DNA from: Oscillospiraceae bacterium
GTDB taxonomy: Bacteria > Bacillota_A > Clostridia > Oscillospirales > Oscillospiraceae
NCBI GenBank assembly: GCA_902789835.1
Contig: CADAPN010000034.1
Location: 1 to 19,119, forward strand
Direction of reading: 5' to 3'
DNA length: 19,119 nt
A program made the translations under genes and the position numbers. Of this stretch, positions 2,230-19,119 are shown piece by piece (the stretch's first letter is position 1; every line of letters starts with the position of its first letter). The notes under the pieces are model-generated. The model searched no databases and had not been told where the DNA came from. It saw only the letters and a program-made list of their open reading frames with translations.

Positions 2230-2235
2230 ATTTTC

Positions 2236-3249: not shown

Positions 3250-3315
3250 GTTCCCGCCTCCTCTGCTTCCCGATCTGTGCGGTCTGCCGTTTTTCTGATT
3301 GTATCTTCTGATTTT

Positions 3316-3344: not shown

Positions 3345-3592
3345 GTTCTGTTTTTGATGACGAAATGCCTTGCCCGGAATTTGCGGCATACAATTTTATC
3401 AGCGTTTATCTTAGCGTTATCATGGGGATGACGGTTTTCCAAAGGACTTTTTTACGAAGGACGATATTTTTTTGGGTTTTTGCCTGTGCTTTGGGCAAAA
3501 TGCTGTACGCCGGAACGCCGGAAACCGAAAGCCCGAGCGGAAAATTTTGAACATTTTTCTCTTGAATCGGAAAAAAACCCGCTTCTCGCCGG

Positions 3593-3646
3593 AAAGTTGT
3601 ACTTATTCTTCATCCCACCTTATAAAGTTGTATTTATTCAACTTTA
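3593..3646 (+). promoter_or_regulatory. Operator-like repeat pair, probable AraR-type binding sites
   Basis: The 16-mer AAAGTTGTACTTATTC (3593-3608) recurs at 3624-3639 with one mismatch, a 31-nt period close to three helical turns, so both copies face the same side of DNA. The second copy belongs to a dyad: TAAAGTTG (3623-3630), an 8-nt centre, then the exact reverse complement CAACTTTA (3639-3646). The first copy has only the left arm. The AraR-like regulator encoded divergently is the obvious candidate to bind; this is inference. Confidence 0.6.
3597..3626 (+). promoter_or_regulatory. Predicted promoter of the sugar transport operon
   Basis: A -35-like TTGTAC (3597-3602) lies 18 bp before a -10-like TATAAA (3621-3626). 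Transcription would start near 3633, inside the palindromic operator, leaving a leader of about 120 nt. Operator-like motifs cover both the -35 element and the start site, the usual geometry for repression. Confidence 0.45.
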
Positions 3647-3756
3647 CGATTTCGTTCTCTGTGCCCTCCGGGCAGTTGACGGAGCGGCTTTTTCGTGGTT
3701 TTATTATGCCAGCGGGTACAGTTGCCCACAAAAAATATGGAATAAGGAGAATGAAC

Positions 3757-4737: not shown

Positions 4738-4778
4738 TCAGAACCTTCAGGAGCAGCAGCTCCAATCCAACGCAAATG

Positions 4779-4824
4779 ACGCGGTGTGGCGAAGTGGAGA
4801 AATCCGCGGTCCACACCGCGTTTT
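4779..4824 (+). terminator. Intra-operon stem-loop terminator/attenuator after the binding-protein gene
   Basis: CGCGGTGTGG (4780-4789) pairs perfectly with CCACACCGCG (4811-4820) across a 21-nt loop and is followed by TTTT. It lies between the binding-protein stop (4737) and the ATPase start (4864). Partial termination here would yield more binding protein than membrane components. The loop contains CCGCGG, so alternative folds are possible. Confidence 0.7.
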
Positions 4825-4863
4825 CTGAATGATTCGTTTGAAAACTACGCAGGAGGACAGCGG

Positions 4864-6366
4864 ATGGAAAATGACATTGTATTGACGATGCGTGGAATCT
4901 GCAAATCCTTTCCCGGTGTGAAAGCCCTGAACGACGTGGACTTCACCCTGCGGAAAGGGACAATCCACGCTCTGATGGGAGAAAACGGCGCAGGAAAATC
5001 CACGCTGATCAAGGTGCTGACCGGAATCTACCCCATGGACGCCGGAGAAATCCGCATTGACGGAACCGAAGGTGCCATCAGCATCCGCTCCCCTCAGGAG
5101 GCACAGAGTTACGGCATCAGCACGGTGTATCAGGAAATCACCCTGTGCCCGAACCTTACGGTTGCCGAAAACATGTTTATCGGGCGCACCCGGGCCAGAA
5201 CCGTGGACTGGAAGGGCATGGAAAAGCGGGCCGGTGAGCTGCTGGACAGCCTCGGCATTCCCGCAAGACCCAGGCAGCAGCTTGGCAGCTGTTCCCTCGC
5301 CGTTCAGCAGATGGTCGCGATTGCAAGGGCTGTCGATACCGACTGCAAGGTGCTGATCCTGGACGAGCCGACCTCTTCGCTGGATGACAATGAGGTGGAG
5401 ATGTTGTTCAAGCTGATGCGGGATCTGAAGGCAAGAGGCGTCGGAATCATTTTCGTCACCCACTTTCTGGAGCAGGTCTACGAAGTCAGCGATCAGATCA
5501 CCGTGCTTCGAAACGGCGAACTGGTGGGGCAGTTTGATGTGGAAGCCCTGCCCCAGGTAAAACTGGTCGAGCTGATGATAGGCAAGGACATCGCCGATCT
5601 TGCCGTCATCAAGAAAAAAGCGCCTCCCTCCGAAACACAGGAAGTTCTCTATGAGGCGGAAGGCCTGTCGAGCAGCGAGAGCCGGCCGTTTGATTTTCAT
5701 ATCGCCAAGGGCGAGGTAAACGGCTTTACCGGGCTTCTGGGCTCCGGACGCAGCGAGAGTGTGCGGGCCATCTTCGGTGCCGACCCGGTCACCGGCGGGC
5801 AGATCAGGGTGAACGGGAAAAAGGTCCGGATTCAGAAGCCTCTGGATGCCATGAAAAACGGCATCGGCTATCTTCCGGAGGACCGCAAGCGCGACGGCAT
5901 CATCGCCGACCTGTCCGTGCGGGAGAACATCATCCTGGCTCTGCAGGTGATCAAAGGCATGGGTCATCCCTTCTCCCGGGCAAAAGCGGAAGCTTTTGCC
6001 GATGAATACATCAAAGCGCTCGAGATCAAGACGGCCTCCATGGAAACGCCGATCAAGTCTCTCTCCGGCGGAAACCAGCAGAAGGTGATTCTGGCCAGAT
6101 GGCTGCTCACCCATCCCCAATACCTGATTCTGGACGAGCCCACCAGAGGCATCGACGTGGGAACCAAAACAGAGATCCAGAAACTGGTTCTGAAGCTGGC
6201 TGAAGAGGGGATGAGCGTCACCTTCATCTCCTCGGAGATTGAAGAGATGCTCCGCACCTGCTCCAGACTGATTGTCATGAGAGACCGGAACATCGTCGGT
6301 GAGCTTTCCGGCGACGAGCTCACCCAGGAGCATGTGATGCGGACAATTGCGGGAGGAGGCAACTGA
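4864..6366 (+). CDS. ytfR: Sugar ABC transporter ATP-binding protein (two ABC domains), YtfR-like
   Basis: This 500-residue cytoplasmic ATPase powers sugar import and has the tandem architecture of the ribose/galactofuranose family (about 500 residues). Domain 1 has Walker [10 protein letters not shown] and Walker [13 protein letters not shown], with a degenerate signature (SCSLAVQQ instead of LSGGQQ). Domain 2 has the usual degenerate Walker A (GLLGSGRSE), a good signature LSGGNQQ and Walker [12 protein letters not shown]. The start MENDIVL is chosen because AGGAGG at 4851-4856 is 7 nt upstream. A longer in-frame extension to 4786 would run through the terminator stem and is rejected. The permease gene starts 2 nt after its stop, implying co-translation. 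Confidence 0.95.
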
Positions 6367-6367
6367 G

Positions 6368-7453
6368 ATGAAACAGAACAAAAAAGCTTCCGGCCAGTTC
6401 TGGGCCAACAACTCCCAGCTGCTGATTCCGCTCATCGCGATTCTGCTTCTGGTGATATTCAATCTGTTCCGGGATCCCTCTTTCTTCTCCGTCGGCATCA
6501 CCACAAACAACAACGGCGACCCGGTTCTTCAGGGGAACCTGATCGCCATTCTGAACGGCGCGTCGGAGCTGGTCATTCTCTCTATGGGCATGACGCTGGT
6601 CACCGCCGCTTCCGGAGGGCAGGACATCTCCGTCGGCGCTCTCGCCGCGATTGCCGGCAGCGTGTTTGTCAAGGTTCTGAAGAGCGGCAGCGCCATCTCG
6701 CCGCTTACCGTCATCGGCGGCTTTGCGATGTGCTGTCTGGTTGCCATGCTGTTTGGCGCCTTCAACGGAAGTCTTGTTTCGATCTTTAACATTCAGCCCA
6801 TGATCGCGACCCTGATTCTGTTCACCTGCGGCCGCAGCATTGCCTACTGGATCAACGGCGGCGCCACACCGACGGTTTCCAGTTCCATCATCAGCGCGAT
6901 CGGCAGCTTTATCCCCGGCATTCCGATCCCGACGCCGATCCTGATTGTCATCCTGATGGGCATTCTCTTCGCCCTGCTCTTCCGCTTTACCACCCTGGGC
7001 CTCTACATTCAGACGGTCGGCATCAACCAGGGCGCCGCAAGACTCAACGGCATCAACTCCGTCGGCATCAAGCTTCTCTCCTTTGTGCTGCTGGGCGCGT
7101 GCTGCGCGGTGGCCGGCGTGATCAGCGTCAGTCGTCTGAGCCTTATCAACCACGAAACCCTGCTCATCAACATTGAAATGGACGCCATCCTTGCCGTTGC
7201 CATCGGCGGCAACAGCCTCGGCGGCGGAAAGTTCCGGATGCTCGGCTCCGTACTGGGCGCCTATGCCATTCAGGCCCTGACCATTACCCTCTACGCCATG
7301 AAGGTGCCTTCCACGGACGTGAAAGCCTATAAAGCGGTGGTCATCATCATTCTGGTGGTCATCGGCTCGCCCGTTGTGAAGGAAGCATTCGACCGCTTCA
7401 GAAAAAAACTCCGGGGCAGCCGCCCTGTCCACACCGGAAAGGAGGCATCATAA
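6368..7453 (+). CDS. ytfT: Sugar ABC transporter permease, YtfT-like
   Basis: This 361-residue integral membrane protein of the BPD_transp_2 (RbsC/AraH) family forms half of the sugar channel. It has many hydrophobic helices and the family signature GQDISVGALAAIAG in the second quarter, plus DAILAVAIGGNSLGGG towards the end. The ATG at 6368 is preferred over the in-frame TTG at 6347, because GGGAGGAGG at 6351-6359 is well placed for it and the TTG lies inside the ATPase gene. The C-terminal tail is basic and cytoplasmic. It pairs with the next gene; YtfT/YjfF systems use two different permeases instead of a homodimer. Confidence 0.93.
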   Translation: MKQNKKASGQFWANNSQLLIPLIAILLLVIFNLFRDPSFFSVGITTNNNGDPVLQGNLIAILNGASELVILSMGMTLVTAASGGQDISVGALAAIAGSVFVKVLKSGSAISPLTVIGGFAMCCLVAMLFGAFNGSLVSIFNIQPMIATLILFTCGRSIAYWINGGATPTVSSSIISAIGSFIPGIPIPTPILIVILMGILFALLFRFTTLGLYIQTVGINQGAARLNGINSVGIKLLSFVLLGACCAVAGVISVSRLSLINHETLLINIEMDAILAVAIGGNSLGGGKFRMLGSVLGAYAIQALTITLYAMKVPSTDVKAYKAVVIIILVVIGSPVVKEAFDRFRKKLRGSRPVHTGKEAS

Positions 7454-7457
7454 GCGG

Positions 7458-8549
7458 ATGAACAAACAGGATAACATTCAGACCGTTCGCCGCAGAGAGC
7501 CCATTACGGATACCCAGCTGCTTCTGACGATCACGATCTGCATCTTTGTTTCCATGTATGTGCTTGCCATGCTGATCTGGGGCGGCGGCTTCCGCAAGCC
7601 GCAGATGCTCTTCGACATGCTCAATGACAATGCCTTCCTCATCATCATCTCCTGCGGTCTTACCATCGTCATGATCACCGGAAGCATCGACATCTCCGTC
7701 GGCGGCGTCACCGCTCTGGTCGCCATGGTCGGCGTCATGATTCTCAACGGCAACCTCGGCCTCTTCAACGGGCTCATCGCCTCGCTGGGCCTCGGAGAGC
7801 AGTGGCGTATCGTCTTTGCGCTTCTGATGGCCCTTCTGATTGGGCTCGCCTTCGGCCTTGTGCAGGGATATCTCATCGCCTGCCTGCAGATTCAGCCCTT
7901 TATTATCACCCTGGCCGGCATGTTCTTTGCCAGAGGCATGATCACCATCATCAGTGTGGATCCGCAGAAGGCGCCGCAGGAACTGATGGACATCCTCCAG
8001 AACCGGATTGAGATCGCCTGGCTCGGCTCCCCCAACAAAAAAGGCGTGATGATTCCCGCCCGGATGGAGATCGGTGTCATCGTCGCACTGGCCGTTGTAT
8101 TTCTCGTCTATTTCCTGCTTCGCAGGACGCAGCTCGGCCGCGGCTTCTACGCGGTCGGCGGGAACCAGCAGAGCGCCCTGATGCTCGGCGTCAACGTGCG
8201 GAAAACCCGCTTTCTGGCCCATCTTCTGTGCGGACTTCTGAGCGGAATCGCGGGCTTTGTCTTCATGATGCACACCGGCGCAGGCAATGCGACCAATGCG
8301 ACAGCTGCCGAAATGAATGCCATCGCTTCTTCCATCATCGGCGGCACGCTCCTCACCGGCGGTGTCGGAAACGTGATCGGCACGCTCTTCGGTGTTTTGA
8401 CCCTCAGCACCATCAAGTCGATCGTAACCACCTCCGGTCTGAGAGATCCCTGGTGGCAGAGCATTACAACCGGCGCCATGCTGTGCTTCTTCATCGTCCT
8501 CCAGAGCGTCGTGCTGATGCACAGAAGCAAGAATAAGGAGAAGAAATAG
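7458..8549 (+). CDS. yjfF: Sugar ABC transporter permease, YjfF-like
   Basis: This 363-residue membrane protein is the second permease of the importer and homologous to its neighbour. Landmarks are [40 protein letters not shown] and [17 protein letters not shown], all typical of the YjfF subgroup. The ATG follows AAAGGAGG at about 7438-7445, which lies at the end of the preceding gene, and there are 4 nt between the genes. The C-terminus is lysine-rich (SKNKEKK). No break or missing segment is evident. Substrate is inferred only from operon context. Confidence 0.93.
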
Positions 8550-8562
8550 GAGAAAAACATCT

Positions 8563-10116
8563 ATGGATCTGACCAAAACCGTACTCGGGATTGAGCTTGG
8601 CTCGACCCGCATCAAAGCCGTCCTGATCGATCAGCAGCACCGCCCCATCGCCTCCGGCGACTACGAATGGGAAAATCGGCTCGTCAACGGCATCTGGACC
8701 TACTCCATGGAAAGCGTCCACACCGGGCTCCGGGCCTGTGTCAAAGCGCTGAAGGCTGATCTGAAGGAAGAATTCGGCGTGGACCTCACCACGGTCGGCG
8801 CCATCGGCGTCTCCGCCATGATGCACGGCTATCTCCCCTTTGACAAGGATGGAAAGCAGCTGGCGGAATTCCGCACCTGGCGCAATACCATCACGGGCCA
8901 AGCGGCGGAAAAGCTGACCGCCCTCTTCGATTTCAACATCCCGCAGCGCTGGAGCATCGCCCACCTGTATCAGGCCATGCTGAACGGAGAGGCGCATGTA
9001 AAGGACATCGCCTATCTCACGACCCTGGCGGGTTATATCCACTGGAAACTCACGGACCAGAAGGTCATGGGCGTGGGAGAAGCCTCCGGCATGTTCCCGA
9101 TTGACAGCGAAACCTGTGACTATGACGCCGCGATGCTGCAGAAGTTTCTGGATCTCACCGGGCTCGATCTGCGCACAATCCTTCCGAAGGTGCTGCCGGC
9201 CGGCGCCTGCGGCGGCAGGCTCACCGAGGCCGGCGCGCGCTTTCTGGATCCCGACGGCACCCTGCTTCCCGGCATTCCCGTCGCCCCCTGTGAAGGCGAC
9301 GCCGGTACCGGCATGACGGCCACCAACTCCGTCCGTGTCCGGACGGGCAACGTCTCGGCCGGAACCTCGGACTTTGCCATGATCGTCGTGGATCATCCCC
9401 TGGGGGTCCATCGTGAGATCGACATGGTGACCACACCGGACGGACTTCCTGTTGCGATGGTCCACTGCAACAACTGTACCTCCGACATCAACGCCTGGGT
9501 GAACCTCTTCAGCGAATTTGCCCGTCTCATGGGTCTTGACGTGAACCGGGGCGAGCTCTTCACCAAACTCTTTCAGAAAGCCCTGTCCGGCGAACCGGAT
9601 TGCGGCGGGCTCCTGTCCTATAACTATTTTTCCGGCGAGGGCGTCACGGACCTCGATGAAGGCCGTCCGATCTTTGTCCGGTCTCCGTCTGCAAGATTCA
9701 CCCTTTCCAACTTCATGCGCACCCATCTTCTCTCGGCTCTGGCAACGCTGAAGATCGGCATGGACATTCTGACCGAAACCGAACAGGTTCACATCGACAG
9801 GCTCTACGGCCACGGCGGCTTTTTCAAGACCCCCGAGGTCGGCCAGCGCATGCTGTCCGCCGCGGTCGGGGTTCCGGTTTCCGTCATGAAGACGGCCGGC
9901 GAAGGCGGCCCTTACGGCATGGCCCTGCTTGGTGCCTACATGCTCTGGCATGAAGAGGGCGAGAGCCTGCCGGACTATCTGGACAATAAGGTTTTCGCCG
10001 ATGCCCAGAGCAGCACGATTACCGCCACCCAGGAGGACATCGACGGCTTCAATGCCTTCCTCGCCCAGTACCGAAAAGCCCTGCCGTTGGAGCGCCTTGC
10101 CACGGAAGTGCTGTAA
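8563..10116 (+). CDS. FGGY-family carbohydrate kinase (xylulokinase/ribulokinase-like)
   Basis: This 517-residue cytoplasmic sugar kinase probably phosphorylates the imported sugar or its keto isomer. The N-terminal half opens with the FGGY phosphate-binding motif ([15 protein letters not shown], about 8-22) and contains [16 protein letters not shown]. The middle has [12 protein letters not shown]. The C-terminal half has [18 protein letters not shown] and [18 protein letters not shown], which match the ATP-site Gly-rich motifs of the family. It starts 13 nt after the permease stop behind TAGGAG, so it is the last gene of the transport operon. No isomerase, epimerase or aldolase is adjacent, so the exact substrate (ribulose, xylulose or another) cannot be assigned. 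A rho-independent terminator follows. Confidence 0.88.
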
Positions 10117-10368: not shown

Positions 10369-11652
10369 TTATTTTGTCGTGGTGAGATACTTCGCGCAGA
10401 AGGGCTTGATCTTCCCATTGTCATAGACATGCAGGCTGCAGCGGTGCAGGCGCTCAATGTTCAGGTTCATCGCGTCCTGAAACGCCATCGCCGACAGAGT
10501 CAGACTGCCGTGACGCAGCCGGTAGAGAAAGGTGTCGAAGTCCATCTCTTCCGAGAAGTCCGTCTCTGGAGCCGGTTCTTCCGGAGGCCGGCGCCAGTGC
10601 CGGGCGACGTATTCCCGGTTGTCCCTTGCGCAGCCTCTGGTGTGCGAGGAATGGGTGATGGAACTGAGGGGCTTCAGTCTCCCTCCCGGTGCAATCAGAT
10701 AATTTGCGTGAAAACCGCAGAGCGGATGGTCACAGCGGGATGGCATGAAGCTCTCGACGGGGATCCCGGCCTGCCGGCTGATGTCCGCCATCAGCTGGTC
10801 CAGCGTGTACCGGTCCTCCGCCTGCGGTGTGCCCGGATAACGGCCGAAGTACGACACCGGCTGGAAGTGGATCCCCCGGACCCCCGGAGCAAGCGACACC
10901 GCGAGCCTTATCAGCTCCCCCAGGTTGTCGTCGTTGACGCCCTTCACCACCGTGGGGACCAGTGTCACGCCGATTCGGAACCGCGAGCACACTTCGATGG
11001 CCTTTCGTTTTGTCTCCAGCAGCGGAGCGCCCCGCAGCGTCTCATAGATGTCCTCCCGGGTCCCGTCAAACTGGAGAAACACGATGTCCAGTCCCGCCTC
11101 CCGGAGCCGCTCGGCATAGGCCGGGTCTTCCGCAAGGCGGATCCCGTTGGTGTTCACCTGGGTATAGCTGCAGCCGGCCTCCCTGGCATAGCGGATCAGC
11201 TCCGGAAGATCGTCCCGCAGGGTCGGCTCTCCGCCGGAAAACTGCAGCAGCGGACGGCCGCACTGAGCCGCGATCTCACGGATGGCCGCCTTCATTTCCT
11301 CAAGAGAGGGATCCCGGGCGTCGGCTCCGCCGTCGGCAAAGCAGAAGCGGCAGTGCAGATTGCAGCGCCGCGTCACTTCCAGCAGCGCGCAGCAGGTCCC
11401 GATCTCATGCTCCGGGCAGATGCCGCAGGCCTCCGGGCAGTGCAGGCCGGTATTCTCCGCCAGCGGCTCGGTCCCCAGCAGCCAGCGGTCGAAGTCCAGC
11501 TTTCCCCGCCAGACCGGTACAGAGAAGCTCCCGTGCTCCGGGCACTGCTTTTCCATCCGGATCGCCCCGTCCGGCTCCCGCGTCAGCCAGGCCGGCAGGT
11601 TTTTCCGACAGACCGGACACACCGAGCGTGTTTGGCGTATTCTCTCTCCCAT
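10369..11652 (-). CDS. trsS: Radical SAM protein, TrsS-like
   Basis: This 427-residue protein has an N-terminal CxxC...C region (VCPVC at 11-15, QCPEHG about 36-41) and a second Cys cluster (HCPEACGICP, 71-80). The radical SAM cluster motif CNLHCRFC (97-104) is followed by FSGGEPTLRDDL, FLQFDGT and VPTVVKGVND. After the barrel are CDHPLCGFH (about 307-315) and a Cys-containing tail (CSLHVY, FCAKYL). Such enzymes cleave S-adenosylmethionine to make a radical; the substrate is unknown. It matches my recollection of the radical SAM (seleno)protein TrsS family; every site here is Cys and no in-frame TGA interrupts the frame, so this is a Cys form. The ATG at 11652, with GGGGAG just upstream, is preferred over a TTG at 11670. 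It is the last gene of the operon. Confidence 0.82.
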   Translation of the reverse strand: MGERIRQTRSVCPVCRKNLPAWLTREPDGAIRMEKQCPEHGSFSVPVWRGKLDFDRWLLGTEPLAENTGLHCPEACGICPEHEIGTCCALLEVTRRCNLHCRFCFADGGADARDPSLEEMKAAIREIAAQCGRPLLQFSGGEPTLRDDLPELIRYAREAGCSYTQVNTNGIRLAEDPAYAERLREAGLDIVFLQFDGTREDIYETLRGAPLLETKRKAIEVCSRFRIGVTLVPTVVKGVNDDNLGELIRLAVSLAPGVRGIHFQPVSYFGRYPGTPQAEDRYTLDQLMADISRQAGIPVESFMPSRCDHPLCGFHANYLIAPGGRLKPLSSITHSSHTRGCARDNREYVARHWRRPPEEPAPETDFSEEMDFDTFLYRLRHGSLTLSAMAFQDAMNLNIERLHRCSLHVYDNGKIKPFCAKYLTTTK

Positions 11653-11681
11653 CTCACTCTCCCCTGTCAAGGACTCCGGTA

Positions 11682-11705
11682 CGGCATCCGCTTTTGCGGA
11701 TGCCG
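11682..11705. repeat. Perfect inverted repeat between the ligase and radical SAM genes
   Basis: CGGCATCCGC (11682-11691), loop TTTT, then GCGGATGCCG (11696-11705). On the plus strand it is followed by CTTTTCTTC and looks like a terminator pointing against the operon. On the minus strand there is no U-tract after it, so in the operon transcript it is more likely a processing or stabilising hairpin. Confidence 0.7.
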
Positions 11706-11712
11706 CTTTTCT

Positions 11713-12894
11713 TCAGTCGCATGTCTCGATTCTTCTCTTGCCCTGGTACAGGCTGCGGTCCTCGTCTGTCACCGGGCGCAGGGTCCATTCCGCGGAAACA
11801 GACGGAAGCGCTCCCTCTCCGCAGGTCAGAAGCTCCAGGCAAAGCCGTCCCGCCCGTCTCATCGCCCGGTAATCCGCCACCCAGGGCAGGGCGAAGAGGG
11901 TCTCATCCAGCTCGGCGATCTCCGCCGCCTCTCCTTTTCGTTTGACACCGTCGAGGCGCAGAACTGCACTCCCGCAGGGACAGGGCGTCGGCAGAATCCG
12001 GGTATAGTCCCCGGTTCGATAGCGGATCAGAGGCATCGCCTCCATCCCGATGGTGGTGATGACCAGCTCCCCGGTCTCTCCCGGCGGTAGCGGATTCCCC
12101 GTCTCATCGATGATCTCGGCAATCACGTGATTTTCCCGCAGATGCATTCCTTCATGGGCCGGGCAGCAGATCGCGCCGCCCAGGGCCATCTCCCGCGAGC
12201 CGTAATGGGGAAACAGTGCCGTTCCGAGAAGTCTCTCACAGGCGGCAATCACCGCACGGGGGCAGGCATCGCCGCTGACCAAAGCCCGTTCCAGGCTCCC
12301 CTTCCCGCAGACACGCAGGATCGACAGCAGCTGCACCGGCATGCCGACAAAAGTATCCGGATGCTGCTCCGTCAGCACCCTGCGGTACTCTCCGTAGCTC
12401 AGCCCTGCACCCAGCTTCAGCGGCTTCGCCCCAAGGCCCTCGATGGCCTCGCTGATAAGTTCACCCAGGCCGTGGGGTCCGGAGAAGGGAAAGCAGATCA
12501 TCGTCACGCTGCCCGGGCCGATGAGCTCTCCCAGGCCTGCCATAAAGAGCCGGACCGTGTTCCGGCAGTCCCCTTCGGTATAGAAAACCCGCTTGGCCGC
12601 GCCGGTGGTGCCGGACGTGGCATCCGAGAGCACCCTCTGGATCTCTGCCTGAGACCGAAGCAGCAGGCCCGGTGCCTGCGCTGCAAGATCCTCCTCGCTT
12701 GTAAAGGGGAGATTCTTCAGCTCCGAGAGGCTGCAGAGCCTCTCCGGCAGGCTCCGGTAGAAGCCGTCCCGCTTTTTCTCCCACGCCAGAACGCGGTTCA
12801 GCTTTTCCAGCTGAACCGCTTCAATGTCTTTTCTGTTCAGGGTCTGCAGGCCTTCCTGCTCCATGATAAAGCTGTCGATCCGACTCCGTCTCAT
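11713..12894 (-). CDS. AMP-forming ligase of the PaaK-like ANL family (DVU_1553-like)
   Basis: This 393-residue adenylate-forming enzyme has the ATP-binding loop SDATSGTTGAAKR (about 90-102), a second core motif HYGSREMALGG (230-240) and TGELVIT...RYRTGD (about 274-296). A short C-terminal part follows, with CPCGS (305-309) and a terminal GKRRIETCD that supplies the lysine region. PaaK-type enzymes activate an aryl or alkyl carboxylate as the acyl-AMP and usually pass it to CoA; the substrate here is unknown. Length and motif order resemble the DVU_1553 family as I recall it, which accompanies Mo-hydroxylase genes. The start is supported by GGGAGCAG upstream. It lies 18 nt after the Cys-rich gene and 60 nt before the radical SAM gene. 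Confidence 0.85.
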   Translation of the reverse strand: MRRSRIDSFIMEQEGLQTLNRKDIEAVQLEKLNRVLAWEKKRDGFYRSLPERLCSLSELKNLPFTSEEDLAAQAPGLLLRSQAEIQRVLSDATSGTTGAAKRVFYTEGDCRNTVRLFMAGLGELIGPGSVTMICFPFSGPHGLGELISEAIEGLGAKPLKLGAGLSYGEYRRVLTEQHPDTFVGMPVQLLSILRVCGKGSLERALVSGDACPRAVIAACERLLGTALFPHYGSREMALGGAICCPAHEGMHLRENHVIAEIIDETGNPLPPGETGELVITTIGMEAMPLIRYRTGDYTRILPTPCPCGSAVLRLDGVKRKGEAAEIAELDETLFALPWVADYRAMRRAGRLCLELLTCGEGALPSVSAEWTLRPVTDEDRSLYQGKRRIETCD

Positions 12895-12912
12895 GCCAGT
12901 ATCTGCTCCCGG

Positions 12913-13338
12913 TCAGAGGAGCCCCTTCTCTTCCAGAATTTCCATGCACTTGTCAAAGCTCGCCGCCATGATCTGCGGGCAGTATTCCACCCGTTTGGCA
13001 GGATCCGTGCCGATGATGTCTTCACAGTTGATGCCGCCGTAATCCGCGGTGATCTCATCCTGAAACCAGCGGGTGAATTCGCCCAGCGCCGATTTGTGCG
13101 CCGGGTGCTCGTACTCGAAGTCGCCGCCTTTTCCCGTGAAGGAAGAAATCAGGCAGGCGCCGCCCGTCATGCAGCCGCAGCAGCCTTTCGAATACCCCAC
13201 ACCCCCGTCCAGGCCGCCCAGGGCTTTGACCAGGGCGGGATTCTCCTCTCCGGTCACCTTCTCCATCAGCAGCGCCAGGATCTGGCCGCAGGAATATCCG
13301 TATCGGCCGAGCTCGATGATTTGGTCAAACAGGTCCAT
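12913..13338 (-). CDS. C_GCAxxG_C_C-type cysteine-rich protein (DVU_1555-like)
   Basis: This 141-residue soluble protein has eight Cys: C17, the cluster C53/C54/C56/C62 in KGCCGCMTGGACL, and C105, C120, C131. The spacing C...GCxxGG...C...C fits the C_GCAxxG_C_C family, whose members are thought to bind metal or an iron-sulfur cluster. The function is not established. I chose the ATG at 13338 because GGAGAAGGAG sits just upstream, inside the tail of the methyltransferase gene; upstream extensions overlap that gene. It begins 2 nt after the methyltransferase stop. Confidence 0.82.
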   Translation of the reverse strand: MDLFDQIIELGRYGYSCGQILALLMEKVTGEENPALVKALGGLDGGVGYSKGCCGCMTGGACLISSFTGKGGDFEYEHPAHKSALGEFTRWFQDEITADYGGINCEDIIGTDPAKRVEYCPQIMAASFDKCMEILEEKGLL

Positions 13339-13340
13339 GT

Positions 13341-13856
13341 TTATTTCTCCTTCTCCGCGATCAGCAGGCGGTATCCGCACTTTCCCCGCGGCAGCTCACA
13401 GTCACAGGTCTCTCCGCGCCAGAGTGCTTCGATGTAATACGCCTTCCACGCCGCGCTGAGATCCTCGTCAAAGAGGATCCGGAATCCGGCTTCTTCCGCC
13501 ATCGGCCGCAGCGGAGCGAACTCCACATCCGAGAGCATCAGCCGCCCTCCCGGTTTCAAAAGCCGATGGGCCTCCCGCATCGCTCCTGCCGTGTCTCCCG
13601 AAACGAAAAACGCGCACTGGCTCAGCACCGCGTCAAAGCTGCCGTCCGGATAGGGGGCGGCCAGAAAGTTCCCTTCCCGGATCCGGTCCGACCGCGGTCT
13701 GAGGTCGATCCCCTCCGCGCGGTATCCGAGGCTGCTCAGCACTGCCACCGCTTCTCCCGCGCCGGCGCCCATGTCCAGGACTCTGGCCCCTGCCGGAAGC
13801 TCCGCCAGCGCCAGCATGCGCCGGGTATGTTCCGCTCCGCCGGGGTGCCCGTTCAT
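13341..13856 (-). CDS. trsM: SAM-dependent methyltransferase, TrsM-like (DVU_1556-like)
   Basis: The 171-residue class I methyltransferase has motif I VLDMGAGAGEAV (27-38), an acidic end of strand 2 (GIDLRP, 49-54), a motif IV region SFDAVLSQCAFF and KPGGRLMLSDV (101-111). The tail has an unusual Cys triad CDC...C (C151, C153, C160) that could bind metal. It starts inside the stop of the small redox gene (ATGA overlap), so the two are translationally coupled; longer starts would read through that gene. The methyl acceptor is unknown. It fits the TrsM family in neighbourhood and motifs. The stretch between SDVEF and the final helices looks short, which may be a lineage trait or a small loss. 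Confidence 0.82.
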   Translation of the reverse strand: MNGHPGGAEHTRRMLALAELPAGARVLDMGAGAGEAVAVLSSLGYRAEGIDLRPRSDRIREGNFLAAPYPDGSFDAVLSQCAFFVSGDTAGAMREAHRLLKPGGRLMLSDVEFAPLRPMAEEAGFRILFDEDLSAAWKAYYIEALWRGETCDCELPRGKCGYRLLIAEKEK

Positions 13857-14074
13857 TTGTCCTCCAGCGCCCGTTCCACGGAAGCGACCTTCCCCAGTGC
13901 CAGCTCCTCCGGCACATAGACAAAGCCGCAGACCGGGCAGACCGGCAGCTCCACGGGAAAGCCGTTGTCCAGATACATGAATTTCGCCTTGCCCTTGATA
14001 AGAGGAACGTGACATTTCATGCACTGAATCTTTCCCTCCGGGTCGATGGTATAATAGGTTCTCTCGATGGCCAT
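13853..14074 (-). CDS. Small CxxC/CPxC redox or zinc-ribbon protein (DVU_1557-like)
   Basis: This 73-residue protein has two knuckles, CMKC (18-21) and CPVC (46-49), a rubredoxin- or zinc-ribbon-like four-Cys site, and ends in a helical tail (VASVERALEDK). It probably binds iron or zinc and may pass electrons between the large dicluster protein and a partner. Its start overlaps the preceding stop by one base (TGATG), and its own stop overlaps the methyltransferase start, so all three should be made together. Family membership is by recalled similarity to DVU_1557; the function is unknown. Confidence 0.82.
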   Translation of the reverse strand: MAIERTYYTIDPEGKIQCMKCHVPLIKGKAKFMYLDNGFPVELPVCPVCGFVYVPEELALGKVASVERALEDK

Positions 14075-16365
14075 CAGCCTTCCCTCCTGACCACGTTCAT
14101 CCGGTGGCTGTACGCCCCGTGTACGGTAACCCGCCCCTCATCCTCGGTGAATTTGACCCAGAAGGTCGCGTTTCCGAGGCGCCTGCGGGCGATCAGCATG
14201 CCCGTCTCCGAATCCAGAACGGCCTCGCCGTGCTCCCGGTAATCGTTCAGCACCGCGATGACATCGTCCGTCAGAATCATCCGGCTGTCCATCAGACGGC
14301 GGGCTTCGTCCGTATACGTCAGTTCATAATCCAGTTTCATTTCCGCGGTTTCCTCCTGCCAGAGTTCCCAGAGCAGCTCTCTCTTCAGATTCAGACGGTT
14401 GCAGCGCTTCTCGCTGATATCCGGCGGCGCTCCGGCGTCCGTGCCGTAGATCAGCTCCAGAATATGTCTGGACTCTCTCCCTTCCCGGGCGAAGCGGTCC
14501 CTGCAGGCCATACAGTAGGTGATGTAGGGTGCATCCGTACGCTCCAGCGCTTTCCGGGTGATTTCTCCGGCAACCTCCGGATTGGCGTAGGCGGTGAGTC
14601 CCCCGTAGCCGCAGCAGGGAGAGCGGTCTCCGGAGTATTCCGTCTCCACCAGCTTGACACCCAGGCGTGACGCCAGGTTCCGGATCGTCTCCTGGGTATG
14701 GGCATCGCCGCGGGCCCCGCAGGAATCGTGCAGCGCGGCGGGGCGGTCCATCCCCTTCGCACCCTCCGGCAAACCGATCTGCTCCAGAATATCCCAGATT
14801 CCGACGATCTCTCCGCCGATGGATTCCGCCAGCTCCTTGCGGCAGCTGGGGCAGCCTGCGATAATCACCGGGTCCCCAAGTTTGGAGAGCTCCGTCAGCA
14901 GGAACTCCCGTGTGCTCTCCTGCATCTCGAAGCGCCCGGCCCAGTCGCAGATCGCCCCGCAGCAGCCCAGCATCAGCGCCACCCCTCCGTCCAGGCGGCT
15001 GCAGAGGTCGAGATAGGCGGCCTTCACCGTCTCCGGTGCGATCGCCGAGGCCTGACATCCCGGGAAGAAGACATACCGGCAGGTTTCACGGCCCGGCTGC
15101 GGCCGGCTGAGGAAGGCGTCGGCGTTCGAAAACAGCATGTCCATCAGCGCAAACTCATGCGGCGCCAGGGGCATCTTGTCTGTGGAGACCATGTTCCGCC
15201 GGGCTACCGCACAGACGTGGGCCATGTCGAAGCCGTTGGGACAGACCACCGTGCACTGTCCGCAGAGGGTGCAGGCGTTCATCGGCTTGTTGAGCTGATG
15301 ATCGCCCATGATGATCTGGGTATTGTTATAGATTTCTTTGGAGAGGAGCCCGGGATATTTCTTATAGTGTTGCAGATAGGCGCAGCTCTTCATGCACTCT
15401 TCGCAGTGGCACTGGATGCATCTTGCTGCCTCCTGTGCCGCCTGTGCCGGCGTGTAGCCGCTCTTTTCCAAGGGAACACGGCGGAGTGCAGAGGCCTCCG
15501 AGAGATCCGTGTAGAGTCTGCTCTCTGTGGCTCCTTCGCTGCCGCGCATATTGCGCGGATCCAGGTTCTGAGCCAGGCGGTCCACCGTAAGGGCGGCTTT
15601 CTTCGCACCGAAGGCGGCAGCCATGACGCCCGCGCCGCAGCCGGTGACGAGGTTCTCCGCCTCCAGGATCATGAGCGCCGGATCTGCCTGTGCCGACGGG
15701 AACAGCTTCTTCGCCACGGTTTCGGAGGCGCAGAGCACATCGAAGGTCTCCCGCTGCCGGGCAAGAAAGTCTTCATCCAGGGTACAGCCGAAGACAAACT
15801 GAATGTCCTTGCCCTTCAGGCGCTTGAGCTCCAGAGAAAAGGCCTCTTCATCCAGAAACTCCGTCTCACAGTGCAAAAAGGCTTCCAGGTCTCCCTGCTC
15901 GCAGAACACCGTGGTCGGATAGGCTTTCTTTTCCAGCTCTCCCGCGAGAAACAGAGGGAACAGCCCCGAGCCCAGCACCGCGACGGTCTTCTTTTTCTTC
16001 GTCCGGAAAACGCTTCCGAGTCTGGAGGCCTGTCCGTAGCGCGCCGCAGCAGCCTCCACCGCGCGCACCGCGATCCCGTCCCCCCGCTCACACAGGCGGC
16101 ACTTTGCTTCACAGGGCGCTTCACAGCCCATGGACAGGATCAGAGGGAACGGCGTCGCCTTCTCATAAAGCTGCAGGGCTTTTTTGAAGTCTCCGCCCGC
16201 CGCCGCCTTCAGAAAGGCGCGGGTATCCAGTTTCAGCGGGCAGGCCGCGTTGCAGCTCGGCGGCTCTTCATAGACGCAGCGCGCCACCATGCTCTCCATT
16301 TCCTCTTTTGAGATGCGGTTGACTTTATATACGTGGGTCGAGCCTCGCTCCTGAATCTCGGGCAT
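14074..16365 (-). CDS. Dicluster-binding iron-sulfur oxidoreductase with HdrB-like CCG domains (DVU_1558-like)
   Basis: This 763-residue protein begins with the Cys-rich helical domain of glutamate synthase small subunit/DPD type (CNAACPL about 38-44; CEAPCEAKCRLC 81-92). A Rossmann-like segment follows (about 126-156, VAVLGSGLFPLFL), whose dinucleotide loop is degenerate (GxGxxP). Cys clusters come next (CIQCHCEECMKSC 316-328; CTLCGQCTVVCP 365-376), then two CCG domains as in heterodisulfide reductase HdrB (FFPGCQ...GCCGAICDW about 433-474; HDSCGARGD...SPCCGYGG 546-589; CMAC 618-621). About 90 further residues lack a recognised fold. It likely moves electrons and may carry unusual 4Fe-4S clusters in the CCG domains. 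First gene of the operon, with GGGAGGGAG 5 nt before the ATG and a promoter just upstream. Confidence 0.87.
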   Translation of the reverse strand: MPEIQERGSTHVYKVNRISKEEMESMVARCVYEEPPSCNAACPLKLDTRAFLKAAAGGDFKKALQLYEKATPFPLILSMGCEAPCEAKCRLCERGDGIAVRAVEAAAARYGQASRLGSVFRTKKKKTVAVLGSGLFPLFLAGELEKKAYPTTVFCEQGDLEAFLHCETEFLDEEAFSLELKRLKGKDIQFVFGCTLDEDFLARQRETFDVLCASETVAKKLFPSAQADPALMILEAENLVTGCGAGVMAAAFGAKKAALTVDRLAQNLDPRNMRGSEGATESRLYTDLSEASALRRVPLEKSGYTPAQAAQEAARCIQCHCEECMKSCAYLQHYKKYPGLLSKEIYNNTQIIMGDHQLNKPMNACTLCGQCTVVCPNGFDMAHVCAVARRNMVSTDKMPLAPHEFALMDMLFSNADAFLSRPQPGRETCRYVFFPGCQASAIAPETVKAAYLDLCSRLDGGVALMLGCCGAICDWAGRFEMQESTREFLLTELSKLGDPVIIAGCPSCRKELAESIGGEIVGIWDILEQIGLPEGAKGMDRPAALHDSCGARGDAHTQETIRNLASRLGVKLVETEYSGDRSPCCGYGGLTAYANPEVAGEITRKALERTDAPYITYCMACRDRFAREGRESRHILELIYGTDAGAPPDISEKRCNRLNLKRELLWELWQEETAEMKLDYELTYTDEARRLMDSRMILTDDVIAVLNDYREHGEAVLDSETGMLIARRRLGNATFWVKFTEDEGRVTVHGAYSHRMNVVRREG

Positions 16366-16402: not shown

Positions 16403-16430
16403 ATAGAGAGGTCCCGAAGGACCTCTCTAT
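16403..16430 (-). promoter_or_regulatory. 12-bp palindrome with c(UUCG)g loop at the transcript 5' end
   Basis: ATAGAGAGGTCC (plus strand 16403-16414) and GGACCTCTCTAT (16419-16430) are perfect reverse complements around a 4-nt loop. Read on the minus strand the loop is UUCG closed by C-G, the very stable tetraloop. The palindrome touches the -10 element and spans the predicted start site, so it can be a 5' stabilising hairpin, an operator, or part of a terminator for the upstream Mo-enzyme gene. Confidence 0.65.
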
Positions 16431-16456
16431 TATAGCATTGCGTCTGGTTTTTGCAA
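16429..16456 (-). promoter_or_regulatory. Predicted extended -10 promoter of the trs-like operon
   Basis: On the minus strand TTGCAA (16451-16456) is followed after 16 bp by a perfect TATAAT (16429-16434), preceded by TGC as an extended -10 element. The start of transcription would be near 16422, about 57 nt upstream of the dicluster gene start. It is the best promoter match in the window. Confidence 0.7.
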
Positions 16457-16552: not shown

Positions 16553-16867
16553 TCAGAGTGCCTTCAGGGCGGCGAGCACCTTGTCCGGCGTGGCCGGGAT
16601 ACGGGTGACACGGGCTCCGGTGGCATTGAAGATCGCGTTGAGGATGGCCGGGTGCGGCGCATCCAGCGGGGCCTCGCCGCAGCCGGCAGCACCGTAGGGG
16701 CCGGAGGGACGATAGGTCTCGTTGTAGACGAGCTCGATGTCATCAGGGATGTCCTTGATGTACGGGATGCCGCACTTGAGCAGGCTGGTGTGCTTCGACA
16801 GATCTTCGAAGTCCTCGGTCAGCGCAAGGCCGATGCCCTGTGCCAGGCCGCCGTAGAAGTTGCCGTC
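16553..16867 (-). pseudogene. Out-of-frame 3' fragment of the molybdenum hydroxylase
   Basis: In a frame different from the main coding region, 104 codons starting at DGNFYGGLAQGIGLALTEDF continue the Mo-hydroxylase protein and end at a TGA (16553-16555). They contain GAAGCGEAPLDAPHP, whose Glu (codon 16673-16675) corresponds to the catalytic glutamate of the xanthine oxidase/aldehyde oxidoreductase family. No start codon with a ribosome-binding site precedes the fragment, so it is not an independent gene. It shows that the intact gene once, or in truth, extended to 16553. Confidence 0.85.
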
Positions 16868-19119
16868 GTGTACATGTAGGTGGCAAACGGATCGCCCTGG
16901 GCGGTGTCCTGATCGATCGGATGATCGGCGCAGAAGGTGGTGACCCAGTTGCCTTCAACCTTCAGCTTCTTTCCGTCGGCGACCATCTCGTCATAGGTGC
17001 GGAAGGTGCCGTCGTCCTTCTTCATCTCGGCAACCAGCGCTTCTGCCGCGAGGCGGCAGGCGTTGCCGGACATGACCTGGGAGCGGGAGCCGCCGGCAGG
17101 TCCGGAGTTCGGGGTGTACTTGGTGTCGTTCATGACCAGGCGGATCTGCTCGGGCTTGATGCCTGCCTGGCGCAGGGTCTCATGAGCCGAGACCAGGATG
17201 CCCATGTCGGCGCCCTGTCCGTGATCCTCCCAGGAGGCGTACATGGTGACTGTGCCGTCCGGATTCAGCTCGGCGTAGGCGGAGGAGGTGTCAACACCGT
17301 CCAGGCCGCAGCCGTACACACCGAGGGAGACACCGATGCCGTACTTATACCGTCCGTCGGAAGCGGCGTTCTTCTCGGCAACTCTCTTCTTGCCGGCCTC
17401 ATACAGCGGGCGGGCCTTGTCAAACAGGGCTTCTTCGCAGTAAACCTCAGGCGGATAACCTGTCGGAATGGTGGTGCCTTCGGACTCCTTGTAGCAGTTC
17501 ATCGCGCGCATCTCGAACGGATCGATGCCCATCTTGGCCGCGAGGCAGTCGATGGCGATATCCGAGCCCATGAAGCTCTGCGGAGAACCGTAGGCACGGA
17601 AGGCGGAGCCCCAGGCGTGGTTCGTGAAGACCGTCTGGCTCTTGTTGCGGATGGAGGGGATGCCGTAGCCGGCGCCGGTGAACTGGCTCAGACGCATGGT
17701 CAGCAGGTCGCCGAACTCGGAGTACGGGCCGTGGTCGACATAGTTGTCGCCCCAGAGAGCCAGCAGCTTGCCGTTCTTGTCGGCCGCCAGCTTGATATGC
17801 ATGAAGGCCGGGGAACGCTTGCCGGTGTAGGTGATGTTCTGGAACTGGTTGAAGTTCAGGGACACGGGAACGCCCAGGATCTTGGCGGCCGCGCCGATGA
17901 GGGCTTCGTTCGTCGGGGAGAACTTGTAGCCGAAGGTACCGCCGGCGTGGTTCTGGACGATGCGGAGCTTCTCCATCGGGACACCGATACCGTCGGCGAT
18001 CATCGGCATGTGCAGATGGATACCGATGGACTTGGAGTGGACGGTGACCATGCCGTCTTCATCGATGTAGCCGTAGCCGTTGTCCGGTTCGAGGTGCAGG
18101 TGCGGCTGACGGGAGCAGTAGCTCTCGATCTCGACCTGCTGGGAATCGGGCACGCTGTCCCAGTCGAAGTCCGGTCCCTTGATGCAGTTGGTCTCGAAGA
18201 AGACGTTCGGGGTACCCGGGTGGATTTCGATGGCGTCGGGGGCCATGGCGTCAAGAGCGCTCATGTAGGCGGGCAGCTCTTCGATGTCGACCTTGACGGC
18301 ATCGGCAGCGGCGCGGGCATGCTCTTCGGTGTCGGCGGCAACGATCGCGATGGCATCGCCGAACTGGAAGATCTTGTCAGAACACAGGACCGGGCGCTCA
18401 AAGCCGTCGGTCTTGTTGTGCTTCGGCAGCATGACGAGGCCGTTGATCTTGTTGGAGCCGCCGGCAGCCAGGATGTCCTTGTAGGTGATGACCTTGACAA
18501 CGCCGGGCATCTTTTCGGCTTCGGATGTGTCGATGGACTTGATGTTGGCGTGGGAAACCTTTGCCTGAGTGAGGGCCAGACGCAGGCAGCCGGGCATCTT
18601 CAGCGCGTCATCTGCACCGAAGTCCCACTGACCGGTGACCTTCTGGGCTGCGGAGGGACGGATGTACTTGGTGCCCTTGATGCTGTCGCCGGTGGGCTTG
18701 AAGACCAGGTCTTCCTTGGTCATCTCACCGCGCAGAACCGCGGCGGCATCCATGACGGCGTCAACCAGCGGCTTGTAGCCGGTGCAGCGGCAGAGGTTGC
18801 GGGTCTTGTTGAACCAGTCGCGGACCTCTTCGCGGGTCGGGTTGGGATTCTGCTCCAGCAGGACCTTGGCGCTGATGATGAAGCCCGGGGTGCAGAAGCC
18901 GCACTGGGCGCAGCCGTGGGCCATCCAGGCAACCTGCAGGGGGTGCATGTCGCTGAGCGTGCCGACACCCTCGATGGTGGTGATCTCAGCATTGTCGGGA
19001 ACCTTGCTCATCTTCACGATGCAGGACTTGGTGACCTTGCCGTTCATGATGACGTTGCAGGCGCCGCAGTGGCCTTCGCCGCAGCCGATCTTGCAGCCGG
19101 TGAGCAGCAGATGCTCACG
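16819..19119 (-). CDS. Molybdenum-dependent aldehyde oxidoreductase, Mop-like (5' cut by window, 3' frameshifted)
   Basis: The frame is open to the window end, so the N-terminus (about 30 residues by family length) is missing. It starts in the plant-type [2Fe-2S] domain (CGEGHCGAC). The helical [2Fe-2S] domain follows (CAQCGFCTPGF, LCRCTGY), then directly the molybdopterin part (GGTFGYK, AFRAYGSPQ, GGSRSQVMSGNA). No FAD domain is present and the iron-sulfur and Mo parts are fused, as in Desulfovibrio gigas aldehyde oxidoreductase (about 907 residues) and unlike three-subunit xanthine dehydrogenases. Such enzymes oxidise aldehydes or hydroxylate heterocycles with water as oxygen source. After DPFATYMY (16870) the true continuation is absent and the frame shifts to a tail of about 16 unrelated residues ending at 16819. 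Codon use is strongly biased, suggesting high expression. Confidence 0.88.
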   Translation of the reverse strand, partial: REHLLLTGCKIGCGEGHCGACNVIMNGKVTKSCIVKMSKVPDNAEITTIEGVGTLSDMHPLQVAWMAHGCAQCGFCTPGFIISAKVLLEQNPNPTREEVRDWFNKTRNLCRCTGYKPLVDAVMDAAAVLRGEMTKEDLVFKPTGDSIKGTKYIRPSAAQKVTGQWDFGADDALKMPGCLRLALTQAKVSHANIKSIDTSEAEKMPGVVKVITYKDILAAGGSNKINGLVMLPKHNKTDGFERPVLCSDKIFQFGDAIAIVAADTEEHARAAADAVKVDIEELPAYMSALDAMAPDAIEIHPGTPNVFFETNCIKGPDFDWDSVPDSQQVEIESYCSRQPHLHLEPDNGYGYIDEDGMVTVHSKSIGIHLHMPMIADGIGVPMEKLRIVQNHAGGTFGYKFSPTNEALIGAAAKILGVPVSLNFNQFQNITYTGKRSPAFMHIKLAADKNGKLLALWGDNYVDHGPYSEFGDLLTMRLSQFTGAGYGIPSIRNKSQTVFTNHAWGSAFRAYGSPQSFMGSDIAIDCLAAKMGIDPFEMRAMNCYKESEGTTIPTGYPPEVYCEEALFDKARPLYEAGKKRVAEKNAASDGRYKYGIGVSLGVYGCGLDGVDTSSAYAELNPDGTVTMYASWEDHGQGADMGILVSAHETLRQAGIKPEQIRLVMNDTKYTPNSGPAGGSRSQVMSGNACRLAAEALVAEMKKDDGTFRTYDEMVADGKKLKVEGNWVTTFCADHPIDQDTAQGDPFATYMYTTATSTAAWHRASALR

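What the first reader, a model, noticed from the sequence alone, without database searches (positions are those of the whole stretch)
10369..16365. Compact trs-like operon of unknown function next to a Mo-hydroxylase
Six genes packed with overlaps encode a dicluster HdrB-like oxidoreductase, a four-Cys mini redox protein, a methyltransferase, a C_GCAxxG_C_C protein, a PaaK-like adenylating enzyme and a radical SAM protein. Content and order mirror what I recall of DVU_1558 to DVU_1553, beside a Mop-type enzyme as at DVU_1559. A methyltransferase, radical SAM enzyme and adenylating enzyme together look like a small-molecule or cofactor pathway. I infer two options: maturation or modification of the Mo-enzyme or its cofactor, or metabolism of the Mo-enzyme's carboxylate product (acyl-AMP or acyl-CoA formation) with electrons passed to the HdrB-like protein.
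Basis: partly seen in the sequence, partly recalled or inferred. Interest (0 to 1): 0.8.

Follow-up and report, generated by a model that had tools for sequence, protein, structure and literature searches.

The report
Trs operon serving MOP-type aldehyde oxidoreductase
A tightly packed six-gene operon of unknown function sits beside a molybdenum aldehyde-oxidising enzyme, and in two genome samples its marker genes turned up almost only in genomes that have that kind of enzyme, which suggests a dedicated, still undescribed helper pathway for a classic enzyme.

Summary
In detail: six overlapping or closely spaced minus-strand genes (16365-10369) follow an FAD-less Mo-hydroxylase of the Desulfovibrio MOP type. 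NCBIfam has a model for each (the methyltransferase falls below its cut-off), so the window is a member of a curated neighbourhood of unknown function. The neighbouring Mo-hydroxylase is broken by a 106-bp deletion. A second sample of 179 agrees (11 shared of 12 TrsS and 13 AOR genomes). Elsewhere the set forms one run with MoeA-like, XdhC and MocA genes, once behind tandem Moco riboswitches. One single-contig genome has three AOR-dicluster-DVU_1557 triplets but one TrsS and one ligase over cut-off, which points to a trans-acting biosynthetic or maturation role rather than product metabolism. New here: DVU_1557 proteins end in a near-invariant LEDK; TrsS keeps tetraether synthase's metal ligands but not its invariant tyrosine; an AOR-free paralogous cassette pairs TrsS and ligase with dihydrolipoyl dehydrogenase. 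The product is unknown.

The parts
16553..19119 (-). FAD-less Mo-hydroxylase (MOP-type aldehyde oxidoreductase), 5' end cut by the window, frame broken by a 106-bp deletion at about 16868
   Evidence: NF045668 1232 bits; Pfam Fer2_2, Ald_Xan_dh_C, MoCoBD_1/2, no FAD domain; PDB 1dgj and 1sij best; deletion against 8 relatives
14074..16365 (-). Dicluster protein: GltD-like N-terminus with Fer4_20, degenerate dinucleotide fold, 4Fe-4S dicluster, two HdrB-like CCG domains
   Evidence: NF045663 790 bits; Pfam; 25 of 26 positions checked are Cys in 96-100% of 45 relatives
13853..14074 (-). DVU_1557/DUF7479 small protein, two CxxC knuckles, near-invariant C-terminal LEDK
   Evidence: NF045645 91 bits, PF24292; last residue K in 46 of 46 (window and 45 locus sequences) and in 119 of the 120 listed database homologues
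13341..13856 (-). Class I SAM methyltransferase, DVU_1556-like (short)
   Evidence: NF045667 123.6 bits, under the cut-off of 155; Methyltransf_11
12913..13338 (-). C_GCAxxG_C_C protein, DVU_1555 family
   Evidence: NF045669 138 bits, cut-off 103
11713..12894 (-). PaaK-like adenylate-forming enzyme, DVU_1553 family; P-loop, RTGD and C-terminal K-R motif present
   Evidence: NF045666 324 bits, cut-off 300; PDB 4r1l alignment; conserved columns and C-termini
10369..11652 (-). Radical SAM protein TrsS, tetraether-synthase (Tes) superfamily
   Evidence: NF045646 506 bits, cut-off 490; PDB 7tol 7.3e-72; metal-ligand residues conserved in 92-93 of 93 sequences
16403..16434 (-). TATAAT hexamer running into a 12-bp perfect hairpin with a TTCG loop, between AOR and the dicluster gene
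   Evidence: sequence; fold, with stems of different sequence in L004, L015 and L117

Best explanation
The operon is the accessory module of MOP-type, FAD-less molybdenum aldehyde oxidoreductases. It has two layers. AOR, the dicluster protein and the DVU_1557 protein form the catalytic and electron-transfer unit: electrons leave AOR through its 2Fe-2S clusters and go to the multi-cluster, HdrB-like dicluster protein, with the small four-Cys protein as partner (inferred). The methyltransferase, C_GCAxxG_C_C protein, ligase and TrsS are a trans-acting biosynthetic layer, co-encoded in relatives with Moco maturation genes, that builds or installs a small-molecule group which this unit needs. Inferred steps: the ligase activates a carboxylate as acyl-AMP; TrsS abstracts H from an unactivated carbon and, as shown for its homologue Tes, passes through a carbon-sulfur intermediate on one of its clusters to give a C-S or C-C bond; the methyltransferase and the C_GCAxxG_C_C protein finish or handle the product. 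Shown here: gene content, near-exact co-occurrence, shared operon with Moco genes in relatives, one TrsS and one ligase over cut-off beside three AOR units in one genome, retained catalytic and metal residues. Not shown: the product and its place of use.
For: Class sample of 291 genomes: TrsS over cut-off in 11, AOR in the same 11; ligase 12 and dicluster 12, namely those 11 plus G121. Without the centre genome, Fisher p = 1e-18. Of 20 TrsS genomes picked from the 80 loci, 20 have an AOR match, 17 over cut-off. Full run MoeA-like, AOR, dicluster, DVU_1557, MT, CGC, TrsS, ligase, XdhC, MocA, HisPhos in L133 and L150, nearly the same in L131, L136, L143, L149, L151. Moco riboswitches before the L149 operon. 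G110: three AOR-dicluster-DVU_1557 triplets (L129-L131), one TrsS and one ligase over cut-off; G199: two AORs, two TrsS, one ligase over cut-off. TrsS metal ligands and the Tes Met439 equivalent conserved.
Against: G121 has contig-cut AOR, dicluster, ligase and CGC but no TrsS over cut-off. In G264 the TrsS over cut-off lies in an AOR-free cassette; the one beside its ligase at C103 is cut by the contig end at 244 bits. G131 and G264 carry AOR-free cassettes with two TrsS-type proteins and a ligase (L145, L142). D. gigas AOR has MCD and is active without a sulfido ligand, so nothing obvious is missing from its known cofactor. The MT in the window is under its family cut-off. The window's own AOR is broken. 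Genomes in a sample are related, so the p values overstate independence.
Confidence: 0.58

Rival explanations
1. Product metabolism: AOR makes a carboxylate, the ligase turns it into an acyl-AMP or acyl-CoA, and MT, TrsS and the C_GCAxxG_C_C protein process it further, with electrons to the dicluster protein.
For: The ligase is a PaaK relative with P-loop, RTGD and C-terminal lysine motifs and lies in the same run as the oxidase in many relatives.
Against: One ligase and one TrsS over cut-off with three AOR triplets in G110; Moco maturation genes interleaved; MT, CGC and ligase relatives with dihydrolipoyl dehydrogenase and no AOR in L145. Flanking ORFs were not all annotated, so further pathway enzymes are not excluded.
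Confidence: 0.15
2. The module changes the molybdenum cofactor itself (pterin, dithiolene or a labile Mo ligand) or inserts it, as a variant of XdhC/MocA maturation.
For: Shared run with MoeA-like, XdhC and MocA genes, cysteine-desulfurase-like genes in L113, L114 and L138 (L114 and L138 scanned, under the TIGR01977 cut-off), Moco riboswitches.
Against: MCD in D. gigas AOR at 1.28 A (trs genes in D. gigas not checked). The pterin-methylase reading of the TrsS homologue MJ0619 was not corroborated by its later study. AOR-free cassettes exist.
Confidence: 0.2
3. TrsS is a membrane-lipid enzyme like tetraether synthase and its company with AOR is incidental.
For: Tes is the nearest solved relative and second-best NCBIfam model (299 bits).
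Against: Under the Tes cut-off (299 against 450); Tes Tyr459 aligns with Val409 (V in 90 of 93 TrsS); chain 427 aa against 526; co-occurrence with AOR.
Confidence: 0.03

Closest known systems
TrsS neighbourhood (NCBIfam NF045646, NF045663, NF045645, NF045667, NF045669, NF045666, with NF045664, NF045665, NF045668); TrsS credited to Haft and Tolstoy 2025
   Same: Same protein families; NCBIfam even names an XdhC family AOR maturation factor and a DVU_1551 family NTP transferase. The window is a member.
   Different: TrsS stands after the ligase here, the AOR is deleted for 106 bp, and the CobW-type GTPase gene found near TrsS in 50 of 80 loci is absent from the 60-nt ligase-TrsS gap. The 2025 paper is not held; seen only as a table row and reference in PMC13188914.
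MOP, aldehyde oxidoreductase of Desulfovibrio gigas and D. desulfuricans (PDB 1sij/1vlb, 1dgj; species of the entries recalled, D. gigas confirmed by PMC10223205 passages)
   Same: Closest solved relatives of the Mo-hydroxylase; D. gigas AOR is FAD-less with MCD.
   Different: The window copy is broken; in print flavodoxin is the putative electron partner, whereas here a dicluster protein and a DVU_1557 protein follow AOR.
Tetraether lipid synthase Tes / GDGT-MAS (MJ0619, PDB 7tol)
   Same: Radical SAM core, rubredoxin-type site, N-terminal cluster ligands, C-terminal Cys and labile Met equivalents, SAM loop Gln/Ser/Arg.
   Different: Invariant Tes Tyr459 is Val409; about 100 residues shorter; no lipid context.
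Hdr-like sulfur oxidation with lipoate-binding protein LbpA and the dedicated lipoate assembly (PMC6067878, PMC10332631; starts of abstracts seen in a search listing)
   Same: Works like at most: Hdr-type protein, ligase, radical SAM enzyme and a small partner protein kept together (the two radical SAM sulfur inserters LipS1/LipS2 and the ligase sLpl are recalled).
   Different: DVU_1557 is a two-CxxC, DUF7479 protein, not a lipoyl domain; the ligase is PaaK-like; the radical SAM enzyme is Tes-like; no lipoate shown.

Membership tests
TrsS (NF045646) | Score over curated cut-off 490 bits | tested here: met
   506.5 bits
DVU_1553 family AMP-dependent CoA ligase (NF045666) | Score over cut-off 300 bits | tested here: met
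   323.9 bits
DVU_1555 family C-GCAxxG-C-C protein (NF045669) | Score over cut-off 103 bits | tested here: met
   138 bits
DVU_1556 family methyltransferase (NF045667) | Score over cut-off 155 bits | tested here: not met
   123.6 bits, 171 aa against a 213-position model; same place in the operon as in L133
DVU_1557 family redox protein (NF045645) | Score over cut-off 60 bits | tested here: met
   91.2 bits
Dicluster-binding protein (NF045663) | Score over cut-off 530 bits | tested here: met
   789.9 bits
Molybdopterin-dependent aldehyde oxidoreductase (NF045668) | Score over cut-off 1100 bits; no FAD domain | tested here: met
   1232.5 bits on the part before the frameshift; no FAD domain among Pfam hits
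Molybdopterin-dependent aldehyde oxidoreductase (NF045668) | Intact reading frame through the C-terminal part | tested here: not met
   106-bp deletion, frameshift at about 16868
Tetraether lipid synthase Tes (NF045702) | Score over cut-off 450 bits | tested here: not met
   299.3 bits
Tetraether lipid synthase Tes (NF045702) | Invariant Tyr459 | tested here: not met
   Val409 in the window, V in 90 of 93 TrsS sequences
Tetraether lipid synthase Tes (NF045702) | Three [4Fe-4S] sites and rubredoxin-type iron site | tested here: inconclusive
   Ligand residues present by alignment; no metal analysis, and the C-terminal cluster's Cys assignment is inferred
Phenylacetate-CoA ligase PaaK (TIGR02155) | Score over cut-off 646 bits | tested here: not met
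   88.2 bits
Phenylacetate-CoA ligase PaaK (TIGR02155) | CoA ligation of aryl acids | not testable with these tools
   needs an assay
Lipoate-type carrier and assembly system | Lipoyl carrier domain | tested here: not met
   DVU_1557 protein hits only DUF7479 and a weak zinc-finger model

The most novel reading that the evidence does not exclude
The Trs enzymes make a new thiol/disulfide-type redox group, built by a Tes-like radical SAM enzyme through carbon-sulfur chemistry and a PaaK-like ligase, and attach it at, or use it with, the near-invariant C-terminal LEDK tail of the DVU_1557 protein, which then carries electrons between the molybdenum enzyme and the HdrB-like dicluster protein. In the AOR-free cassette dihydrolipoyl dehydrogenase takes the place of the dicluster protein.
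Probability: 0.15. Interest if true: 0.88.

Novelty: new member of a known kind. Interest (0 to 1): 0.6.

Why it matters
MOP-type aldehyde oxidoreductase gave the first crystal structure of its family (PMC10223205 passage), yet the genomic partners of its relatives point to an undescribed biosynthetic requirement. If true, a textbook enzyme depends on a radical SAM pathway for which I found no functional study in the held library, and the question becomes testable by deletion and mass spectrometry in a genetically tractable Desulfovibrio.

Tried and rejected
Rejected: a selenocysteine TrsS in G177. The one TGA reported inside the match is the natural stop at the end of the protein. Rejected: pterin methylation by TrsS from the Pfam name HMPTM; MJ0619 was re-identified as tetraether synthase and the pterin claim not corroborated. 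Not counted as TrsS: sub-cut-off matches of 341-365 bits in G152, G246 and G024 and 313-356 bits in G413 and G432, genomes without AOR over cut-off. Not counted as AOR over cut-off: G121 and G219, G381, G384 and the 500-760-bit group.

Led nowhere: paper searches for the locus tags and for trs gave no functional study in the held library; searches show DVU_1559 only as a row in tables. The structure model of the DVU_1557 protein is weak (mean pLDDT 64.5, tail about 51), so no fold search was made and the second structure job was not used. D. gigas, D. desulfuricans and D. vulgaris loci could not be reached; the Desulfobacterota were not sampled. CGC was sought in 20 handles, not in the whole sample; DVU_1557 and MT were not sought genome-wide; ligase and dicluster protein were sought in the class sample only. 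In some searches only part of the first-look candidates was scored in many genomes, so extra copies can be missed (the third AOR of G110 was seen only beside its dicluster gene). ModA, ModB and ModC were recognised by reading the sequences, not by a profile scan; cluster identities rest on scans of one member each. One search lists 120 of 1137 homologues, the best-scoring ones.


Full report
What is there. The window carries six minus-strand genes between 16365 and 10369 with overlaps or short gaps. NCBIfam has a curated model for each: dicluster protein NF045663 (790 bits), DVU_1557 protein NF045645 (91), DVU_1556-type methyltransferase NF045667 (124, under its cut-off of 155), DVU_1555-type C_GCAxxG_C_C protein NF045669 (138), DVU_1553-type AMP ligase NF045666 (324) and radical SAM TrsS NF045646 (506). 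Upstream lies a Mo-hydroxylase of family NF045668 with 2Fe-2S and Moco domains and no FAD domain among its Pfam hits, closest among solved structures to aldehyde oxidoreductases 1dgj and 1sij. That gene is cut by the window end and has a 106-bp deletion at about 16868 against L048 (96% identical) and the seven other relatives compared, which shifts the frame before the C-terminal part. Deletion or assembly error cannot be told apart here. The plus-strand genes are of another kind: sensor kinase, a sugar-binding protein and an FGGY kinase by scan, a second binding protein and an ABC transporter by reading.

Eighty TrsS loci were fetched. Of 20 genomes picked from them, 20 have a match to the AOR family, 17 over cut-off; of the other three, G001 and G010 have it in pieces at contig ends and G016 has a full-length match of 980 bits. 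Because those were picked for TrsS, an even sample was then drawn from the class of G002: of 291 genomes TrsS is over cut-off in 11 and AOR in exactly the same 11. The ligase is over cut-off in 12 and the dicluster protein in 12, in each case these 11 plus G121, whose AOR is cut by the end of the same contig and which has no TrsS over cut-off. In G264 the TrsS over cut-off belongs to an AOR-free cassette (L142), while the one beside its other ligase is cut by a contig end (244 bits). For the ligase model 181 genomes have a match; below the 12 over cut-off the next score is 229.5 bits, well apart from the 300+ group. In 179 genomes of the phylum of G020, AOR is over cut-off in 13 and TrsS in 12, shared 11. 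The odd ones: G384 has an AOR cut by its contig end on the TrsS contig; G380 has a TrsS (469 bits) cut by its contig end on the AOR contig; G391 has only a 332-bit TrsS-like protein. G381, not over cut-off, has a contig-cut AOR (1056 bits) without dicluster gene beside it or TrsS. Without the centre genomes the Fisher values are 1e-18 and 1e-13; kinship makes these optimistic. In the second sample 18 genomes have only Mo-hydroxylases of about 500-760 bits, and none of them is in the TrsS list, so the link is to the MOP type, not to Mo-hydroxylases at large.

Neighbourhood. In the 80 TrsS loci the commonest neighbour cluster is a CobW/HypB/UreG-type GTPase (50 loci); next are Mo-hydroxylase (25), XdhC (24), dicluster (18), ligase (16), and MocA-type, phosphatase-HD and MoeA-like genes (14 each). 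In many of the rumen Oscillospiraceae TrsS and the GTPase stand apart from the AOR-dicluster-DVU_1557-MT-CGC-ligase run. In other genomes everything is one run: MoeA-like, AOR, dicluster, DVU_1557, MT, CGC, TrsS, ligase, XdhC, MocA, phosphatase-HD in L133 and L150, and nearly so in L131, L136, L143, L149 and L151. L149 has two Moco riboswitches directly before the operon and one more past its ModC-like gene, L137 and L112 have one each; none in the window; that is 3 of 14 sources searched. L113, L114 and L138 add a cysteine-desulfurase-like gene, L137 a nucleoside-phosphorylase-like one.

Who serves whom. G110, one 4.04-Mb contig in this region, has three AOR-dicluster-DVU_1557 triplets (L129-L131) but one TrsS and one ligase over cut-off. 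G199 has two AORs and two TrsS but one ligase over cut-off; G177 has two of each. The first two fit a trans-acting layer better than a substrate-specific degradation path. L167 shows ligase, MT and CGC with a different AOR-like protein and a cysteine-desulfurase-like gene, without dicluster or TrsS beside it.

AOR-free cassettes. L145 (in G131) has a CGC relative, a free-standing C-terminal domain of the dicluster protein, an MT relative, dihydrolipoyl dehydrogenase (TIGR01350, 476 bits, cut-off 409), two TrsS-type proteins (545 and 373 bits, the second under cut-off), a DVU_1553-type ligase (333) and an unassigned protein related to the 2-hydroxyglutaryl-CoA-dehydratase-like one in L142. L142 (in G264) has a similar pair of TrsS-type proteins (545 and 350 bits) and a ligase (337); no Lpd relative was found there. 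Both genomes also have AOR over cut-off. So at locus level the trs chemistry does occur without a Mo-hydroxylase, and in one of the two a disulfide-active flavoenzyme stands in the operon.

Proteins. TrsS aligns with tetraether synthase. With the numbering offset of 20 that I infer from Cys9 of the paper, TrsS keeps the rubredoxin-type site (C12, C15, C37, H40), N-terminal cluster (C72, C76, C79, H82), SAM cluster (C97, C101, C104), C312 and C405 (each 93 of 93), C419 (92 of 93), the labile-Met equivalent M389 (93 of 93) and the SAM loop Q264, S267, R271 (93, 89, 93 of 93); Tes Tyr459 is Val409 (V in 90 of 93) (assignment of C312 to the C-terminal cluster is my inference). Tes forms a carbon-sulfur intermediate on one of its [Fe4S4] clusters (abstract of PMC9433317). 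The ligase keeps P-loop and RTGD residues, and 36 of 39 sequences of 380 aa or more (3 shorter ones of 42 left out) have a K-[KR] pair in the last 22 residues. In the dicluster protein 25 of the 26 positions checked are Cys in 96-100% of 45 relatives (position 34 is Glu in the window and Cys in none), while a GxGxxG/A-type motif is found in 32 of 45 and is degenerate in the window's lineage. The DVU_1557 protein ends in LEDK in 41 of 46 sequences (window and 45 loci) and in K in 46 of 46; of the 120 listed database homologues 118 end LEDK, one LEEK, one LEDQ. The other seven families compared end variably.

Reading. Most likely the operon is a dedicated accessory module of MOP-type AOR: AOR, dicluster and DVU_1557 protein as working unit; MT, CGC, ligase and TrsS as makers of a small-molecule group for it. 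A stable pterin change sits badly with the MCD of D. gigas AOR, and the HdrB-like domains, the dihydrolipoyl dehydrogenase in L145 and the conserved tail make a thiol/disulfide-type group an attractive but unproven guess. Known status: the families are curated, TrsS was named in a 2025 paper I could not read, and the searches found no functional study in the held library.

Noticed in passing
16403-16434 (-): Between AOR and the dicluster gene a TATAAT hexamer runs into a 12-bp perfect hairpin with a TTCG loop; in L004, L015 and L117 the stem is kept with different bases (GTCC/GGAC, GCCC/GGGC, GCTC/GAGC). Operator, attenuator or processing site is open.
   Followed up: partly
about 16868: 106-bp deletion in the Mo-hydroxylase gene, absent from the 8 relatives compared; real pseudogene or assembly error.
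   Followed up: partly
11652-11713: The ligase-TrsS gap holds a short perfect hairpin; in the closest relative L048 a CobW-type GTPase gene lies here instead.
   Followed up: partly
L142:6621-7199 and nine other loci (e.g. L034:8817-9572, L158:12223-12954): DUF5714 proteins (L142 copy scanned; related to selenoprotein MbdU) recur in TrsS loci.
   Followed up: partly
L145:3641-12279: AOR-free paralogous cassette with dihydrolipoyl dehydrogenase, two TrsS-type proteins, ligase and a free-standing dicluster C-terminal domain.
   Followed up: partly
L137:5793-6101, also L144 and L148: PpnP-type nucleoside phosphorylase gene (L137 copy scanned) between MocA and the ligase.
   Followed up: partly
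L114:17817-18107, L113:16701-16976, L111:16732-17019: About 95-aa protein with no Pfam or NCBIfam match (L114 copy scanned) behind a cysteine-desulfurase-like gene in AOR cassettes.
   Followed up: partly
92-10116 (+): Sensor kinase, two sugar-binding proteins, sugar ABC transporter and FGGY kinase (partly by reading); an ordinary sugar-uptake locus facing the trs operon.
   Followed up: no
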